From: Mesodorylaimus sp. YZB2_4
Taxonomy: Eukaryota > Nematoda > Enoplea > Dorylaimida > Dorylaimidae
DNA length: 64,000 nt
Assembly (NCBI GenBank): GCA_030248295.1
Contig: JASANH010000938.1
Location: 310,001-374,000 of the forward strand
Direction of reading: 5' to 3'
Shown: positions 17,662 through 51,438 of the stretch, in pieces
Layout of the letters: every line of letters starts with the position of its first letter
How positions within the stretch are numbered: the stretch's first letter is position 1
The notes under the pieces: generated by a model
The model's input: the letters and a program-made list of their open reading frames with translations, nothing else
What the model was told of the DNA's origin: nothing
Database searches by the model: none
Position numbers and translations under genes: made by a program

Positions 17662-19950
<2,289 letters not shown>

Positions 19951-21456
19951 AGCGTGCCGCTGATTCGAGCCGAATATATGACCAGAATAAAACCCCAATA
20001 GCTAATATCACTCATAAAACGATCAGTAATCAGTCCACTTTGGACCGATCGCCCAACATCCCTCACAAGAAAACTAATGAAAAGGGGCCATGCGCACATT
20101 GGTCTGGTTGATGCGCAAGACATTTTAAGCGCCAATTCAAAATTTTTAAAGTGAGCATGGCAGATCACTGGTTTTCCAGGAAGACAGCCCAGTTCTAAGC
20201 AGGTTCAATGTCTGAGGGCGCCAGTTGAAGGAGTCGGCATTTCTCTTATTGCGGGCAATGGCATTCATACTGACGGCTGCAAGCCACGCTACCTCACATA
20301 AGCTTGGGCCCCACAGCAATGTGAAGCCATACCATACCATATTTTACTCATACCCAAGCACTTACATGCACTCAAACGGGTAAGAGACACACATACATGA
20401 CTATGACAGAATTATACGAATAAAAATTTCCAGCTAGAAATCAAAAAACCAGCTTTGCCAAATAAGAACGTAATTGTGAAAAGTTCCTAAGGCACCGTCT
20501 GCTTATATTGCGTATGTACTGTAACCTGTGCCGGTGAGCGCAGTGCGGTCGTTCACAGCACCCTGATGCACTTGTGGGCTCTCTCAATTCGACACCCGGA
20601 TTGGGGGCCCATTGGAGTTGTATAAGCCCCACTTGCAGTTCCATGTGTTCATGGGTGACTCGAGCCAAGAAAGCCGAGCACTCGCCTTCGCTTGGTTCTT
20701 GGGGGAGCCATTGTCGCTTGGTTTATGTCTCACAAATGAACATGAAAATTGTACTAGTCCCCATTGGAACCACGTGCCCCTACCAGGGTCACAAATGCAT
20801 AAACAGGGTGAGCATGGTGGCCACGAGTCCAAGCTTTACTAGCCTCGCATGAGAGCACGAACAGAGTCACAGCACTTGCCCTTCGGCCACAGGGGTCCTT
20901 AAAGTGGTTGTCAGATATACTGCCCTTAGGTGGGTTAGGAGTCGATTTTGAACGCTTGGTGCGCGGTATATCATTTCGTGGGTAATGTGTCCCTTCACCC
21001 TCGAGTGCGCCAGCTTGCTGATGTGGTAGAGCAGGATCAGGTCAGCTTCAAAGGTCACAGAGGAGCCGACAGCACTGCCTGGTGAAGAAAGAGGCTATGT
21101 CGTGCTACCGAGGTTCTGATGGTCTCATTCTCATGGGTTTCTCATTTTTGTGCAATCTACCACACAGTGTTCCAGAACACAGGAAAGGTCCTCACTGCAG
21201 AGGTGCACGCGTAATCCAATGGTGGCAGTGTAAGCTGACACAGACTCCACACACCTGATACCATACGAAAACAGCACACCCCCACTGTTCGGCAATGAGC
21301 GTGATCATGCGCTTCGGCGGGGCAGTCAGCAAGATATCTTCCATCATAGGGTACCCCTGCGTGTGCTGTAGTCACCCTTCCGCCTAAGCCGAGACACGCC
21401 TTCTCCCTTCTCTAGGAGCTGCACGATACGCAAATGCTTGACACGCCTGACATGCT

Positions 21457-21552: not shown

Positions 21553-21656
21553 GGGACAAAAAACTCCGATTGGAGGAAGGCAAGTCTCGCGACTACACCT
21601 GCCGCTGAAACATCAACCAAAGAGGTTGACCATTCCCAGCCACGGAAGAGTACATA
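21553..21656 (+). repeat. Dispersed repeat family, copy A
   Basis: About 104 bp that matches the reverse complement of 38256-38358 at roughly three quarters of positions by eye. Shared blocks include GCTGAAACATCAACC and GAGGTTGAC. It lies in intergenic DNA. Confidence 0.7.
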
Positions 21657-33583: not shown

Positions 33584-34581
33584 CTTCGCGCTGGCCTTGA
33601 AACACAGTCCACTTTGTTATGTGCACAGTTCGCCAGACGTGTATTGCGTCCTGTTGTGAATGCGTTTCGTTCTTTATTCGCGAAATCTGGTCATCGTTGC
33701 GAGGCCTCTGTCTAGAGTCGTAAGTTTATTGGATAGTTCTGTTTGAATCGTAGGCTCGTTTTTATGTTGGCACTTTTCCAGATTGAATAGACACATTGCT
33801 TGAGTCCTCTGATCATGACGTGTGGCCCAGTCTGTCTTGTCTAGTCTTGTATCGAGATATGCTGTAATGGCTCCTCTGATTGTGAGCCGGTGTGCCAGAA
33901 ACGTGTCTTGATACTGCTCCAGATGGCAGATGAGCCCTTGGTACACCGTCCGTGACGTGCTTGGTGCAGAGAGAATGGCTGTCAATTCCACAGTGGCGGA
34001 GGCGGCACCTAACTCCGGCCTGACAGGTCAGAAACTTATCTCACTTAAATTACCGGAGTAAAAACAGATGCAGAGTACATGCCTCTGTGATATTCTGCGA
34101 AGGCGGGCACCAGTAGCGCTATTCTAGTGGTACCTGAAGTGTCGCATTGTCGTCTAACGTGGCTGTGAACACAGAGGGGCAACCACAGGCACCACAGGCA
34201 CCACAGTAGTCTGACATCGTATCACTATCATGATAGATGTGTTGGGCATGTGGAGAAAGTTGCCTTTACTGGCCGCCGCATACAGCGTATCACTTGATTT
34301 CGTTGGGTGCTCGATACGCTCCTCCAGGCGAGGAGGAAACCCGTTGGGTTGTCTCAAGCTCCCCTCCAATGTAGGGCTATCCAGCTTACGACACCATCAA
34401 ACTACTCGCATGCCTCTGGCCTTGGCCGTAGCGAGTAGCTTTTCGATAGCGTTCACTGCACTACCTGCTGCATATGACGCCAATGCCGGGTCCCGACTGA
34501 CACCTTTGACAGGACGGATTACCACTCCTGGAGAGCTGACGACCGACCGATCAACCTGGAAACTGCGAACGTGGCGGCGTG

Positions 34582-37325: not shown

Positions 37326-37709
37326 CTGCTAGTGCTAGTCACTAACAAAACGAGTTTTCTGACGTAAGCACACTGTATTTGTGATAAGATATAAAATGCG
37401 CCGTTTATGCCAAGGGTTATGAAGAGCCGTTCTTAGAGGTCTCACGGAAAAGAGGCACATTGCGTCTAATTGAAATCTCAATCCCCAAAAGGCGACGAAC
37501 TTTCATAAAGCTAGCTAGGTTCTCCTGAAAATTAGACCCGAACTCGACAGGGGAACAAAAAACTGACACATGCCAGGTCCTGCTAGCCAACACATACAAA
37601 GAAAAAAATGAAGAGAGCTAAGCTACAATTGATAACACACAAGCTGTGCCCACGATACGTAGGCAATACCTACAGTAGACACAAAGACCATGTCAACGGG
37701 AGCAAGAGA
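37326..37709. other. Gap between receptor remnant and MsrA 3' UTR
   Basis: 384 bp on the downstream side of MsrA. The short ORFs here have no transmembrane pattern. Probably the distal MsrA 3' UTR and spacer. Confidence 0.4.
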
Positions 37710-37777
37710 GGTGGCCTCAGTCATCAACCAATTAGCGGGCACATGCTTTGGCTAATCGGCATCACAGGCGGGTCACC
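37710..37777 (-). promoter_or_regulatory. Putative SECIS element of the MsrA mRNA
   Basis: Read on the minus strand, this begins 26 nt after the MsrA stop. The core is GTGAT (5' side) against TGAT (3' side), the non-Watson-Crick quartet of SECIS elements. Between them CCGATTAGC pairs with GCTAATTGG (9 bp, one G-U). The apical loop starts CAAAGCATG, so the conserved A run lies 12 nt after the TGA, within the usual range. Below the core, GCCT/AGGC and GGTG/CACC can form helix I with an internal loop. The 5' core base is G rather than the commoner A. It would recruit SBP2 and EFSec to decode the UGA at 39596-39598. Confidence 0.75.
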
Positions 37778-37802
37778 ACTTTGTCCCAACCAGGTAACAC
37801 GG

Positions 37803-39664
37803 TCACAAGCCGCAGCTGGCGTGGATGCCTCCCCGAGCGATGATGGCCTTGAGTGCACTGGACTGCCTTTCATCGAGCTGCCAGTCGGCCGAGTCGCGTT
37901 CGAACTGCTGTATGGTTCCATAGCCACCAATGTAGCCGTTGATCTTGGCTGCCACGTGACTCGTCACCACTTCGCTGTCAGTGAACCCGAACAGGCGGAA
38001 GAGAATCGGGTGCGAGCGCAGCAAGTATTTCTGGTGGTAGCTGAAATGGAAGGCCGTAGATGGCAAGGACGCTGATGTGTAGGATAAAGTGCTCAACAGA
38101 AGCAGAACAGTGCAGGGCGTTTGGGTCACACTAGGCTCTGACTGAGGAGGCCCTAACGATCACGGGCGATTAAAGTGCCGTCCAAACGTGGACTCCACCT
38201 TGTGATGAACTATTGTAACCCTCTGCCGGCAGGCCATGGCGAGTGGGAGAGAGTAATCGACACCCTCCCCTGGCTGGGAGATGTCAACCTCTCGGGTTGA
38301 TGTTTCAGCTGTAGGCAAAGTCGCAAAACTTGCCTGCTCCAGTCAAAGTTTTGGTCCCGCTGACTTTGGTCGGCCACTCTCTCTCTCGCCTGGCGGCATG
38401 GTTGCACACTGTGGCGCACAGCACAGGTGATCGTGGCATTAAAACTCTTGCAGGGCTTACTTCTCAGCTTCTGTGAAGGTGCCTACGGGCAGGATGCTCG
38501 TCAGGATGAGGGCGTTGTATCGCCGCTGCTCCTCCTTCATGGTTTCCATTGCCAGCTGACGTTGCTCCTCGTTATAGTAGAAGATGGCAGACCTGAAACA
38601 AGCCAGTCGCATAGGGTGCTCAGGGAAGGATAGAGTGGCAAGGCTTTGGACAAAGCTGTCCAGCATGGAAAGACGGCAAGACATCCGTGACGTCCTAGAG
38701 TCCTAACTCATCAAAGCAGGAACCCTGGCCAGCCTTGAGAGCGACAACGTGGCTGGGCTGGCGATTCGAGATCATCATCTGGCACCAAAAAGCAGTTCGC
38801 ATCTTTTGGCATTAACTCATTGACAGTCCGGTTGGACCACCAATTTCTAGGCAGCTCTTCCAGCACACTGGGCTTCTGTGCTTGTCCGATAGAGTCATCG
38901 GTCCAAGTGGTTCACCGTCCGGCTGGCCGGGTTCGATCACTGGCGAGTCAGCATCTACCGATCTGGCCTTGAGCTTGGATCCCGAACCAGCAGTCGGGTC
39001 GGATCGGTCGATGCTGGCTGGAGAGAGGACTGTTCGGACTACCCCATCCTAACTGACTCACGTCAGTACCAGGGGCAAGCACTAGCGTGTGATCCTAGTC
39101 ACGCAAACAGGAGATACCAAAAGGCCTTGCTTAGGAGGGTAAGGTCATGGGAGAGTCAAATTATATTCAAAGAGGAAATAAAATTTGAAAAATAGCCTCA
39201 GCAGCCCATTCTGACACGACATGCAAATATGCTGTAGGTGTGCAGCCAACAAACTGACATGAATAATTCTCACTCCACTTGGTTTCTCTAGACTTGACTG
39301 CTGGTCCCCTGGGCACGGACTCACATGTATTGTCGTTTGTGAGGCACGGTAGGATTGTGACTGGACCAGAACTTGGACAGCAGGGTCCCGTACGACATCA
39401 CGCTCGGGTCGTAGTCCACTTCAATCGTCTCCACGTGATCACCTCTGGAAATGGGACACATTAGATCGGACAAACACAGCACACTCCAACCGACATGTTA
39501 TAGTAGGTGGGATGGTCGGTCTTTCCTCCCGCGTAGCCGACCCTCGTTCGAATGACCCCGGGCGCGATGGCGCACTGCGCCTCGGGGAACCAAAATCATT
39601 GAAGTCCGAAAGCTGCTTTCATCGTCTCCACTTTCGGTTCGTAAATGACTTTCGTGCTGGTCAT
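37803..39664 (-). CDS. MSRA: Peptide methionine sulfoxide reductase A, selenocysteine form
   Basis: Reduces methionine-S-sulfoxide in proteins using a nucleophilic Cys/Sec. Four exons (39495-39664, 39325-39444, 38461-38592, 37803-38040) join without phase error to 219 residues, reading one in-frame TGA as Sec. The start is MTSTKVIYEPKVETMKAAFG. The active site reads GLQ-U-FWFPEAQ where relatives have G-C-FW. GVIRTRVGYAGGKTDHPTYY, then GDHVETIEVDYDPSVMSYG, LLSKFWSSHNPTVPHKRQYM, SAIFYYNEEQRQLAMETMK and the family-typical NYHQKYLL, HVAAKINGYIGGYG follow. The TGA (39596-39598) is codon 23. A Cys follows eight residues later and another lies in the C-terminal ASCGL; either might act as resolving Cys (inferred). 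Introns contain a dispersed repeat and a tRNA-like repeat. A SECIS-like stem-loop follows the stop. The alternative, a TGC-to-TGA null allele, does not explain the SECIS. Confidence 0.88.
38256..38358 (-). repeat. Dispersed repeat family, copy B (intronic)
   Basis: On the minus strand this matches the repeat at 21553-21656, with shared blocks GCTGAAACATCAACC and GAGGTTGAC. It sits in the last MsrA intron. Confidence 0.7.
38889..38953 (+). repeat. tRNA-like SINE fragment in an MsrA intron
   Basis: A box A-like GGTCCAAGTGGTTCACCG is followed by a box B-like GGTTCGATCAC (38930-38940), the internal pol III promoter order. Pairing is too poor for a functional tRNA. It lies in the second intron of MsrA, antisense to the gene. 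Confidence 0.45.
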
Positions 39665-49215: not shown

Positions 49216-49218
49216 TCG

Positions 49219-51438
49219 ATGAATGGTTCGTCCGGTTTTCGAGGTGTTCCCATGACCGGTGGCGGAACGAGCGGTTCGTCGTCGGCAGGCAATCACAACG
49301 CACTCAATGAGATGAATTCGTCGTTGCGTTCGCACCACCCCTACTTTCCACGATTGGAGTCATTGGCGTCACCCCTCTACAATGCGGGGGAATTGACTCC
49401 GGCAGGTGTGGCAGCTGCCGCAGCCGCCACTCGCCTTTTCCCCGCTGCTCATTTATCGGCATTGCACGCGGCCGCGGTGGCCGCGGCTTCGACTGTTCCA
49501 CAAACTACGGCCAGTCATCACGGAATGCCGCCACCGTCCTTATCTCAATTTCACCAAGCCGCCGCTGCTGCTGCAGCCGCAGCCGCGGCAGCTAATCATC
49601 ACTCTGTGGCTGCGGCTGCTCACCACCCCTTGCTATCACCGTTCCTCTATTCGCATCTGACGCCGCCGACTGGCTACGGTAGTCAGCCGCCGAGTGCCCC
49701 CAGTTCGACGCCGACAACCGCACCACCGCCGTTCGTGGGCGGGCATCAGAGACACGTGCCGTACGGATCGCCCGTTGAATCAGCATTTATTCCGAGATAT
49801 CGATACCTGCTGCCGTCGACCACGTCGCCCGGCCCGCTGCCACCGGCTCGATTCACGAACACTGTCTTGGCCGATCGCTCGTTATCGGAATCCGAATTCG
49901 GGTCGGCAGCCGCGACTTTGGTTAGAGCACGGCGGCCGTCGTCGCCCGTCCGACCCTCGCTGACCAATGCCCCGATATCCTCGACCACGTCCGGCACGAA
50001 TGCCGCGTCCAGTATTCGTCAAACATCGAGGGCCGACCAACGTCCGCCGAACCCGGCATCAGCGACTGCTGCGAATTCGACGAGTGCTACGTTGCCTGAA
50101 GCAAAAACATCGGCTAGTTCTGATCCGAAGAAGCCGCAAAAGGTTTCTGGTGGCTTGTTGACTCAACCCTACTACCCGTCACATTTCATGAAGGGGACAG
50201 TGATACAGTTGGCCAATGGAGATTTGAAACGGGTGGAAGACTTGAACACTGAGGATTTCGTCCGAAGCGCCCATTTGACGAGTGAACTAAAAATCGATAC
50301 CAGCCAAGTGGTCAAAATCGAAGAAAAATCGGGCGATATTGTGTTGCTCACGTTTTCGGTTGGTGGAAACAAAGTGCAGGTAGGTGTCTGGGCGAGTCGT
50401 ACTGTAGTTGGGGCTGGCGCGCCGAGTATGGATGTTGCGTTTGCTCAGCTTTCAGCATCGTTAGCTCTCGATGGAGAGCGCTGTGGTGGCAGTACGCGAA
50501 TAAGTTTCCACATGGATTATTTGTGTGTTCAGATTCATCGCCTACTAAAGGGTCTCGCCAAGACCCAAGGGGTGCTCGTGTTGAGCGTGTGAGAGATTAA
50601 ACGTTAGCTGGGCGTGTACACGATCGGCCTAATTGATGCGCTATCGAGTAGCAGGTAGCGAAGATTCGCCCAAGTGCTCGGCCTAGCTATGGTAGTTGCA
50701 GCTAATGGGTTGTTGGCCGATGATGTTTGCGTCCATAATTTGTGAAAGCTTATGAAAATTTATGCTTTAGGTTAGCGTCGAGGCGACGGTGGAGCATCCG
50801 TTTTTCGTAATTGGACAAGGCTGGTCGTCTTTCAGTCCTGAAAGAAGGTAAGAGGCATTTTTAATGAGCTGTATCTGGGCGGTGGTGGGTGTAGCTGTGT
50901 ATCGAAGGCGTCAGGTGCATCGTGTGGGTGGCAGAGCGAGGGGAACGACCGCGTGATTTCTCTTTGCAGTAACAATTTGTACGGCTTGCCGTGCCAGCGA
51001 CTACAAGTTGGAGATGTGTGCATTTCGTTGACACATCGCGATGTGGCGGCCAGAGCAGCTGGGCCCGCCGTGACAGTGTCCAACAACAGTGCCGCAGGTT
51101 CGAGCGGTTGTGCTTGGCAATCTTCCGGCGGTGGGGCCCGTCAGTCAGCGCCATTGGTCGGGGCCAAGCTGGCTGGCCATTGTTCGGATGAGACGGCCAA
51201 GCAATCGCAGCTGGCGAGCAGATCGAGTGGCGGACAGCAGAGTTGCATCGACGAGGACGATCGGGCGAGGAAGAGACGAAAGATGACTGTGCCTCTGCGA
51301 ATCGAGGAGCCAGCCAGCCAGCTCGTGTCGCCAGCTTGGAGGTTCCAGCAGTTGGACAGGAGATCGGCATTCACACCGCCCGGAGTCAGTCTGCCGATGA
51401 ACGAACCAGCCAAGTCTCGTCGATGGTCCGTGTCGTGA
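49219..51438 (+). CDS. ATXN1: Ataxin-1-like protein with AXH domain
   Basis: Transcriptional co-regulator of the ataxin-1 family, which binds Capicua and other repressors through AXH. Three exons (49219-50379, 50771-50847, 50970-51438) give 568 residues. The N-terminal half is low complexity, with an Ala run of about 11 residues near 49560 and Ser/Pro/Thr-rich sequence; there is no polyglutamine tract. The AXH domain reads YYPSHFMKGTVIQLANGDLK, VEDLNTEDFVRSAHLTSELK, then VSVEATVEHPFFVIGQGWSS, FSPERSNNLYGLPCQRLQVG and DVCISLTHRDV, closely matching human ATXN1. A basic ARKRRKM follows as a probable nuclear signal. The protein ends AKSRRWSVS, where human ATXN1 has the 14-3-3 and UHM-ligand motif RKRRWSAPE. 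A six-codon uORF precedes the start. Confidence 0.93.

What the first reader, a model, noticed from the sequence alone, without database searches (positions are those of the whole stretch)
39596..39598. In-frame UGA replaces the catalytic cysteine codon of an animal MsrA
Seen: the MsrA active-site motif G-C-FW reads GLQ-TGA-FW. The four-exon model is otherwise open and phase-consistent for 219 residues, with conserved sequence on both sides. A stop at exactly the redox residue, in a family where Cys/Sec exchange is known (for example green-algal MsrA), points to selenocysteine. No alternative splice removes the TGA without deleting the motif. The Gly before the nucleophile is also changed, to Gln. 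A Sec-MsrA in an animal that looks like a compact-genome invertebrate deserves checking for novelty.
Basis: partly seen in the sequence, partly recalled or inferred. Interest (0 to 1): 0.92.

Follow-up and report, generated by a model that had tools for sequence, protein, structure and literature searches.

The report
Selenocysteine methionine-repair enzyme in a nematode
A gene for the protein-repair enzyme MsrA carries a UGA codon where its reactive cysteine should be, read most likely as selenocysteine; such enzymes are known from other animals, but here the host is an early-branching nematode, a phylum known for having lost nearly all its selenoproteins.

Summary
On the minus strand, codon 23 of a clean four-exon MsrA gene (39664-37803) is TGA (39598-39596), at the catalytic cysteine. 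A SECIS-like stem-loop begins 37 nt after the stop codon, and the protein carries the Pfam domain named for selenoprotein MsrA. The same 145 Mb assembly holds tRNA-Sec, eEFSec, SecS and an SPS2 gene with TGA at its own selenocysteine site, plus SelW-type (3), TrxR-type (3), GPx (2) and SelL-like (1) genes with TGA where selenocysteine is expected. Selenocysteine is by far the best reading. A cysteine MsrA lies elsewhere in the genome. Sec-MsrA in animals is not new: it is published for at least eight species. The unexpected part is the host: mitochondrial COX1 and 133 cuticle-collagen domains (6 on the window's contig) make it a nematode near Dorylaimida. The papers I could read give Caenorhabditis one selenoprotein, say earlier work found no Sec-MsrA in nematodes, and call cysteine SPS a nematode trait among animals. 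The collapse of the nematode selenoproteome probably followed the split from this lineage. Nothing here shows expression or selenium incorporation.

The parts
39495..39664 (-). MsrA exon 1: start codon, TGA/Sec codon, intron 1 donor AT|GTCGGT
39596..39598 (-). in-frame TGA, codon 23, at the catalytic nucleophile; read as selenocysteine
39325..39444 (-). MsrA exon 2
   Evidence: joins agree with P0001 and P0002
38461..38592 (-). MsrA exon 3
37803..38040 (-). MsrA exon 4: MsrA_helical domain, C-terminal Cys-Gly-Leu (inferred resolving Cys) and stop TGA 37805-37803
37709..37779 (-). SECIS-like stem-loop in the 3' UTR: G-UGAU/UGAU core (GTGA at 37765, TGAT at 37726), AA 12 nt after GTGA, small apical stem
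   Evidence: no Rfam match
38214..38406 (.). dispersed repeat in intron 3, shared in part with contigs bearing eEFSec, tRNA-Sec, the Cys-MsrA and COX1 copies; ties the window to the same genome

Best explanation
This is a working selenoprotein MsrA gene of an early-branching nematode (near Dorylaimida). Shown from sequence: UGA at the catalytic position, an open four-exon frame on both sides, a SECIS-like element 37 nt after the stop, and tRNA-Sec, eEFSec, SecS and Sec-type SPS2 genes in the same assembly. Inferred: SBP2 and eEFSec bound at the SECIS deliver Sec-tRNA to the UGA, giving U23. U23 attacks methionine-S-sulfoxide and releases methionine, and the resulting selenenic acid is resolved by the C-terminal cysteine (HASCGL) and recycled by thioredoxin and thioredoxin reductase. 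The gene was inherited from an animal ancestor with a rich selenoproteome. A cysteine paralogue in the same genome (GLQ-C-FW) is a likely relative of the copy that later nematodes kept.
For: TGA at the nucleophile with an intact frame. The SECIS-like element was the strongest scanner hit in the window (-23.3; the next distinct hits -10.1 and -8.3), and 0 of 2000 shuffles of the 501-nt UTR stretch gave one as strong (12 of 2000 gave any). In 395,440 nt (both strands of 20 other loci of the assembly, chosen partly because they hold Sec genes) the scanner found 4 hits at or below -20, all four downstream of SelW-type or SPS2 genes. A G before the quartet, as here, was described for some nematode and zebrafish selenoprotein genes (PMC2375036 passages). 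Machinery: tRNA-Sec 76.4 bits, cut-off 47, the only one of 4 matches over it; eEFSec 111.3 bits, cut-off 27, one open frame of 593 aa; SecS, 7 matching pieces on one contig; SPS2 with TGA at LRG-U-GCKVP and an Rfam SECIS at 36.8 bits, cut-off 35. Other TGA genes: SelL-like (Rfam SECIS 39.1 bits), SelW-type x3, TrxR-type 3 of 4 looked at, GPx 2 of 5 looked at. At the Sec column 50 of the 120 listed homologues have W, the residue a TGA=Trp gene call gives, 44 have C and 26 have none. P0001 and P0002 begin 15 residues downstream; the Nematostella and Trichoplax records (marked partial) begin at the very next residue and Acanthaster two on.
Against: No transcript, ribosome or mass-spectrometry data. 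Rfam's SECIS models do not match the element at E up to 10, though they also miss the three SelW-type elements. The folding energy is only moderately low (z -2.21; 6 of 200 shuffles as low). The scanner pattern was written after I had seen the element by eye and admits GTGA for that reason; on whole shuffled 64-kb strands it gave 19 hits as strong in 100 shuffles, the best at -40.4, so the argument rests on position. The scanner also missed the SelL-like element that Rfam finds. SPS2 matched the SelD model exon by exon, at most 58 bits against a whole-protein cut-off of 125, and that model rings in 14 of 14 controls, so its naming rests on the motif. The TGA could not be checked in the DNA of any relative. 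PSTK and SBP2 were not searched.
Confidence: 0.93

Rival explanations
1. Nonsense mutation: the TGA is a real stop and the gene is a young pseudogene, the cysteine paralogue on C472 doing the work.
For: A cysteine MsrA with a complete set of exons exists in the same assembly. No expression data.
Against: The only lesion falls exactly on the one residue where Sec is known in this family, and the rest of the frame is intact. A SECIS-like element lies in the 3' UTR. The closest relatives P0001 and P0002 also lack the N-terminal part, as gene calls would if they shared the TGA.
Confidence: 0.03
2. Assembly or sequencing error for TGC.
For: One base (TGC against TGA) separates the two; reads were not available.
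Against: It does not explain the SECIS-like element, the shortened gene calls of relatives, or TGA at matching sites in SPS2, SelW-type, SelL-like, GPx and TrxR-type genes of the same assembly.
Confidence: 0.02
3. UGA read through as another amino acid, or translation from a start downstream of it giving a protein without the nucleophile.
For: Gene callers give such proteins for relatives.
Against: MsrA needs a nucleophile at this place (established knowledge of the family). The callers' output is what an unrecognised Sec codon produces.
Confidence: 0.02

Closest known systems
Sec-MsrA of other animals (Amphimedon, Trichoplax, Nematostella, Capitella, Branchiostoma: PMC3473315; Strigamia, Daphnia, Ixodes: PMC4244043; passages read in both)
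   Same: Sec at the catalytic site; in the tree the gene lies in the 72-row side (44 W, 15 starting after or gapped at the site, 12 C, and the query), apart from the 47-row side with 33 C (100/99); same FWFPEAQ flank as most W rows
   Different: In a nematode; Gln before the Sec, where the W rows mostly have Ser or Ala; a Cys paralogue in the same genome
Clostridium oremlandii-type selenoprotein MsrA (PDB 4lwj and kin; the organism is recalled, not from a call)
   Same: PMSR plus the helical domain; best solved relatives, E 5.5e-45, Pfam MsrA_helical
   Different: Bacterial Sec insertion uses a SECIS inside the coding region (PMC6155587 passage); here it is in the 3' UTR; this protein ends in CGL
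Selenoprotein system of Caenorhabditis (one selenoprotein, TrxR; PMC2375036 passages)
   Same: Phylum; use of the Sec machinery; G before the SECIS quartet reported for nematode genes too
   Different: 11 genes with TGA at Sec sites here, and SPS2 in Sec form, against 'SPS-Cys found only in nematodes' within animals (PMC4561486 passages)
Sec synthesis genes of the whipworm Trichuris muris (PMC10618284 passages)
   Same: A nematode outside Chromadorea (recalled) with PSTK, SPS2, SecS and TrxR in its metabolic model, so the Sec trait there is not new
   Different: The passages read name no Sec-MsrA, SelW, SelL or GPx and do not give the SPS2 residue

Membership tests
Selenoprotein MsrA | MsrA catalytic domain | tested here: met
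   PMSR 129.3 bits, cut-off 23.7
Selenoprotein MsrA | In-frame UGA at the nucleophile | tested here: met
   39598-39596, aligned with C of GCFW
Selenoprotein MsrA | Selenoprotein-MsrA helical domain (PF20939) | tested here: met
   39.4 bits, cut-off 23.7
Selenoprotein MsrA | Resolving cysteine near the C-terminus | tested here: met
   C-terminus HASCGL; its role is inferred
Selenoprotein MsrA | SECIS in the 3' UTR | tested here: met
   Scanner, shuffles and 395-kb background; Rfam models gave no match
Selenoprotein MsrA | UGA conserved in close relatives at DNA level | tested here: inconclusive
   Only proteins at hand: 50 of 120 W, 44 C, 26 none
Selenoprotein MsrA | Selenium in the protein | not testable with these tools
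   needs mass spectrometry or 75Se
Eukaryotic Sec-decoding organism | tRNA-Sec, eEFSec, SecS, SPS2 | tested here: met
   SPS2 by motif, its SelD model score is under the whole-protein cut-off
Eukaryotic Sec-decoding organism | PSTK and SBP2 | not tested
Nematoda (host) | Nematode cuticle collagen N-terminal domain (specificity recalled) | tested here: met
   133 matches, 6 on the window's contig C2; 0 of 14 prokaryote controls
Dorylaimida or near (host) | Mitochondrial COX1 nearest to this order | tested here: met
   Among the 120 listed, named best hits are Xiphinema, Longidorus and Paralongidorus at 76-81%; the next named are arthropods at 62-65%; no tree was built

The most novel reading that the evidence does not exclude
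An early-branching nematode lineage near the Dorylaimida kept much of the ancestral animal selenoproteome: at least 11 genes with UGA at known Sec sites (MsrA, SPS2, a SelL-like UxxU protein, three SelW-type, three TrxR-type, two GPx). The phylum's collapse to one selenoprotein and to cysteine-type SPS2 would then have happened after this lineage split off, with nematode MsrA passing from Sec to Cys through a duplicate whose cysteine copy survives here beside the Sec copy.
Probability: 0.8. Interest if true: 0.68.

Novelty: new member of a known kind. Interest (0 to 1): 0.6.

Why it matters
C. elegans is the textbook case of an animal that maintains the whole Sec machinery for one codon, and nematodes are cited as one of the great selenoprotein losses and as the only animals with cysteine SPS. 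A nematode with Sec-MsrA, Sec-SPS2 and several other Sec genes places that loss inside the phylum and makes its order testable by sampling Dorylaimia, Enoplia and basal Chromadoria. A Sec and a Cys copy of the same enzyme in one genome is a useful pair for asking what selenium buys.

Tried and rejected
Rfam scans of the window and of the 3' UTR gave no SECIS. On seven loci they gave the SPS2 and SelL-like SECIS over the cut-off and a sub-threshold match (27.4 bits, E 0.11) after one GPx, and missed all three SelW-type elements, so I rely on the scanner and on position. I tried to align five SECIS elements of this genome for a leave-one-out covariance model; MAFFT misaligned them three times and I built no model. 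My scanner missed the SelL-like element and found none strong after the two GPx genes in about 2.5 kb each (one weak hit, -11.3), so the GPx genes are the weakest of the set. GPx matched on six contigs; of five loci fetched two have TGA, one Cys and two begin after the site; the sixth (C787) was not looked at. For TrxR (26 exon matches, none over the whole-protein cut-off) I looked at four gene ends: three read Cys-TGA-Ser/Gly-stop, of which one has a scanner SECIS (-22.0) within the 500 nt fetched and two do not; the fourth ends Cys-Cys-Pro-Ala. MsrB: two matches, no stops inside, so no Sec form seen. The eEFSec protein search listed mostly fish and unnamed proteins at 49-53%; I see no nematode name among the 120 listed of 3747 hits, so it did not help to place the host. 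A contaminant origin of the window was considered and rejected: 6 cuticle-collagen matches on the same contig, and an intron-3 repeat shared with 5 of the 20 loci fetched, among them the eEFSec, tRNA-Sec, Cys-MsrA and two COX1-copy contigs. A link between the Gly-to-Gln change and Sec was rejected because the Cys copy has it too. The papers of Taskov 2005 and Otero 2014 are not held and are known here only through citing papers and recall. Paper searches pairing selenoproteins with nematodes were (listings capped: 25 of 33, 0 of 0, 25 of 54, 15 of 102, 4 of 4, 15 of 30, 10 of 11). None of the listed titles or abstract beginnings describes such a selenoproteome; I opened passages of only some.

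Full report
Observation. Minus strand, 39598-39596, reads TGA. The gene model has exons 39664-39495, 39444-39325, 38592-38461 and 38040-37803; all three introns are GT-AG and phase 2, and the 219-residue frame is otherwise open. Intron 1 starts AT|GTCGGT, a weak donor, but the joined text YYNIGDHVETIEV is what the relatives P0001 and P0002 have, and these two read through all three intron positions. The protein hits PMSR (129.3 bits) and MsrA_helical, which Pfam names for selenoprotein MsrA (39.4 bits). The TGA aligns with the nucleophile of 4lwj.

SECIS. GTGA begins 37 nt after the stop; 12 nt later comes AA, then a small apical stem, and the other strand of the core is TGAT at 37726. RNA folding gives a long stem-loop, z -2.21, 6 of 200 shuffles as low. 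A simple scanner, written after I had seen the element and allowing GTGA, found it as the strongest hit in the window (-23.3; next distinct hits -10.1 and -8.3). Over 100 shuffled 64-kb strands it gave 104 hits, 19 as strong, the best at -40.4; over 2000 shuffles of the 501-nt UTR stretch, 12 had any hit and 0 one as strong. On 20 other loci of this assembly (395,440 nt, both strands; several were fetched because they hold Sec genes) 4 hits reached -20: three after SelW-type genes and one after SPS2. Rfam's SECIS models do not match the MsrA element, nor the SelW-type ones. A G before the quartet was noted for some nematode and zebrafish selenoprotein genes (PMC2375036, passages).

Machinery and other selenoproteins in the same assembly (145,146,385 bases, 1067 contigs). 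tRNA-Sec on C75, 76.4 bits against a cut-off of 47; three further matches stay below it; the TCA anticodon is my reading. eEFSec on C3, 111.3 bits, 593 aa. SecS on C64, 7 matching pieces. SPS2 on C283 with TGA in the place of Sec (NLSDLRG-U-GCKVP, my reading) and an Rfam SECIS at 36.8 bits, cut-off 35; its exons match the SelD model at 25-58 bits, under the whole-protein cut-off of 125. A SelL-like protein on C82 with two TGA codons three apart (FYG-U-GA-U-EKF), AhpC-TSA_2 match of 37.2 bits (cut-off 27) and an Rfam SECIS at 39.1 bits; the SelL name rests on my recall of its UxxU motif. Three SelW-type genes (Pfam Rdx) on C44, C7 and C65, each with one TGA before GY and each with a scanner SECIS. 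Two GPx genes on C539 and C424 with TGA in NVACK-U-GNT; of the three other GPx loci fetched one has Cys and two begin after the site; the SECIS of the two is unsettled. Four TrxR-type gene ends: three read Cys-TGA-Ser or Cys-TGA-Gly and stop, one of them with a scanner SECIS, the fourth Cys-Cys-Pro-Ala. In all 11 genes have TGA at the expected Sec site; seven of them also have a scanner or Rfam SECIS (MsrA, SPS2, SelL-like, SelW-type x3, TrxR-type x1).

The cysteine copy. The PMSR family finds two genes in the assembly, this one and one on C472. The latter reads GLQ-C-FW and has introns at the same three places (my reading). The scanner finds no strong SECIS near it (best -12.2 on its strand). 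In a tree of 119 rows the window gene groups with P0001-P0003 (100/99); the Cys copy pairs with the Cys MsrA of the nematode Aphelenchoides avenae (91/70, a long branch) in the same loosely supported eight-row set (88/77). This fits an old Sec and Cys pair of which later nematodes kept the Cys gene, but the support is modest, and the hand-joined Cys copy had small junction errors.

Relatives. The search found 543 proteins; the best 120 were listed and used. At the Sec column 50 of 120 have W, 44 C and 26 nothing. W is what a gene caller with TGA=Trp writes; I could not see the DNA. The Nematostella and Trichoplax records, marked partial, begin at the very next residue and Acanthaster two on.

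The host. COX1 from contig C73, read with code 5, is 81, 80, 80 and 76% identical to Xiphinema rivesi, Paralongidorus litoralis, Longidorus vineacola and X. pachtaicum; the next named hits are arthropods, nearly all insects, at 62-65% (120 listed). Xiphinema belongs to Enoplea, Dorylaimia, Dorylaimida. COX1 matches 15 times on 11 contigs; the five further places compared are 87-100% alike in stretches, as nuclear copies of the worm's own mitochondrion would be. Nematode cuticle collagen N-domains number 133, 6 of them on the window's contig. Repeats tie the window to 7 of 20 loci from other contigs.

Against print. Jiang 2012 (PMC3473315, passages): MsrA as a selenoprotein in five of six marine invertebrates; earlier work had found no Sec-MsrA in insects, nematodes or vertebrates. 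Strigamia genome (PMC4244043, passages): Sec-MsrA in centipede, Daphnia, Ixodes and Branchiostoma. Lobanov 2007 (PMC2375036, passages): C. elegans and C. briggsae have one selenoprotein. Mariotti 2015 (PMC4561486, passages): within metazoans, SPS-Cys only in nematodes. Santesmasses 2017 (PMC5330540, passages): complete loss in some nematodes. Trichuris muris model (PMC10618284, passages): Sec synthesis genes and TrxR in a whipworm, so Sec use outside Caenorhabditis and its kin is not itself new. The enzyme is thus a new member of a known kind; its host and the company it keeps are the surprise. I found no paper that reports such a set in early nematodes (searches; listings capped, and the library lacks most subscription journals and all preprints).

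Mechanism. Shown: the codon, the frame, the 3' element, the machinery genes. Inferred: Sec insertion by SBP2 and eEFSec (SBP2 and PSTK not searched), attack of U23 on Met-S-sulfoxide, resolution by the C-terminal cysteine, recycling by thioredoxin.

Noticed in passing
L014 about 1240-1440, L012 2089-2154 (contig C283): SPS2 in selenocysteine form with SECIS in a nematode, against the statement that animal SPS-Cys is a nematode trait.
   Followed up: partly
L025, L026, L027: Three SelW-type paralogues with TGA before GY; the first Cys of the usual CxxU motif (motif recalled) is replaced, e.g. FSRGU.
   Followed up: partly
L001 about 850-1565: SelL-like protein with two TGA codons in a UxxU motif and an Rfam SECIS.
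   Followed up: partly
L048, L049, L053-L056: Two GPx genes with TGA at the Sec site but no convincing SECIS within the DNA fetched.
   Followed up: partly
L057, L058, L059, L060: Four TrxR-type gene ends; three read Cys-TGA-Ser or Cys-TGA-Gly and stop, one Cys-Cys-Pro-Ala. Cys-Sec-Ser instead of the usual Cys-Sec-Gly end is odd.
   Followed up: partly
L017-L024: COX1-like copies on many contigs, some with TAA and TAG stops inside: frequent transfer of mitochondrial DNA, or mitochondrial reads joined into nuclear contigs.
   Followed up: no
window 20964-21028, 21553-21653, 34259-34351: Further dispersed repeats shared with other contigs of the assembly.
   Followed up: no
window 18016-18444 (-) and 49216-50589 (+): SPRY-domain open frame and an open frame with an AXH (ataxin-1 and HBP1) domain.
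   Followed up: no
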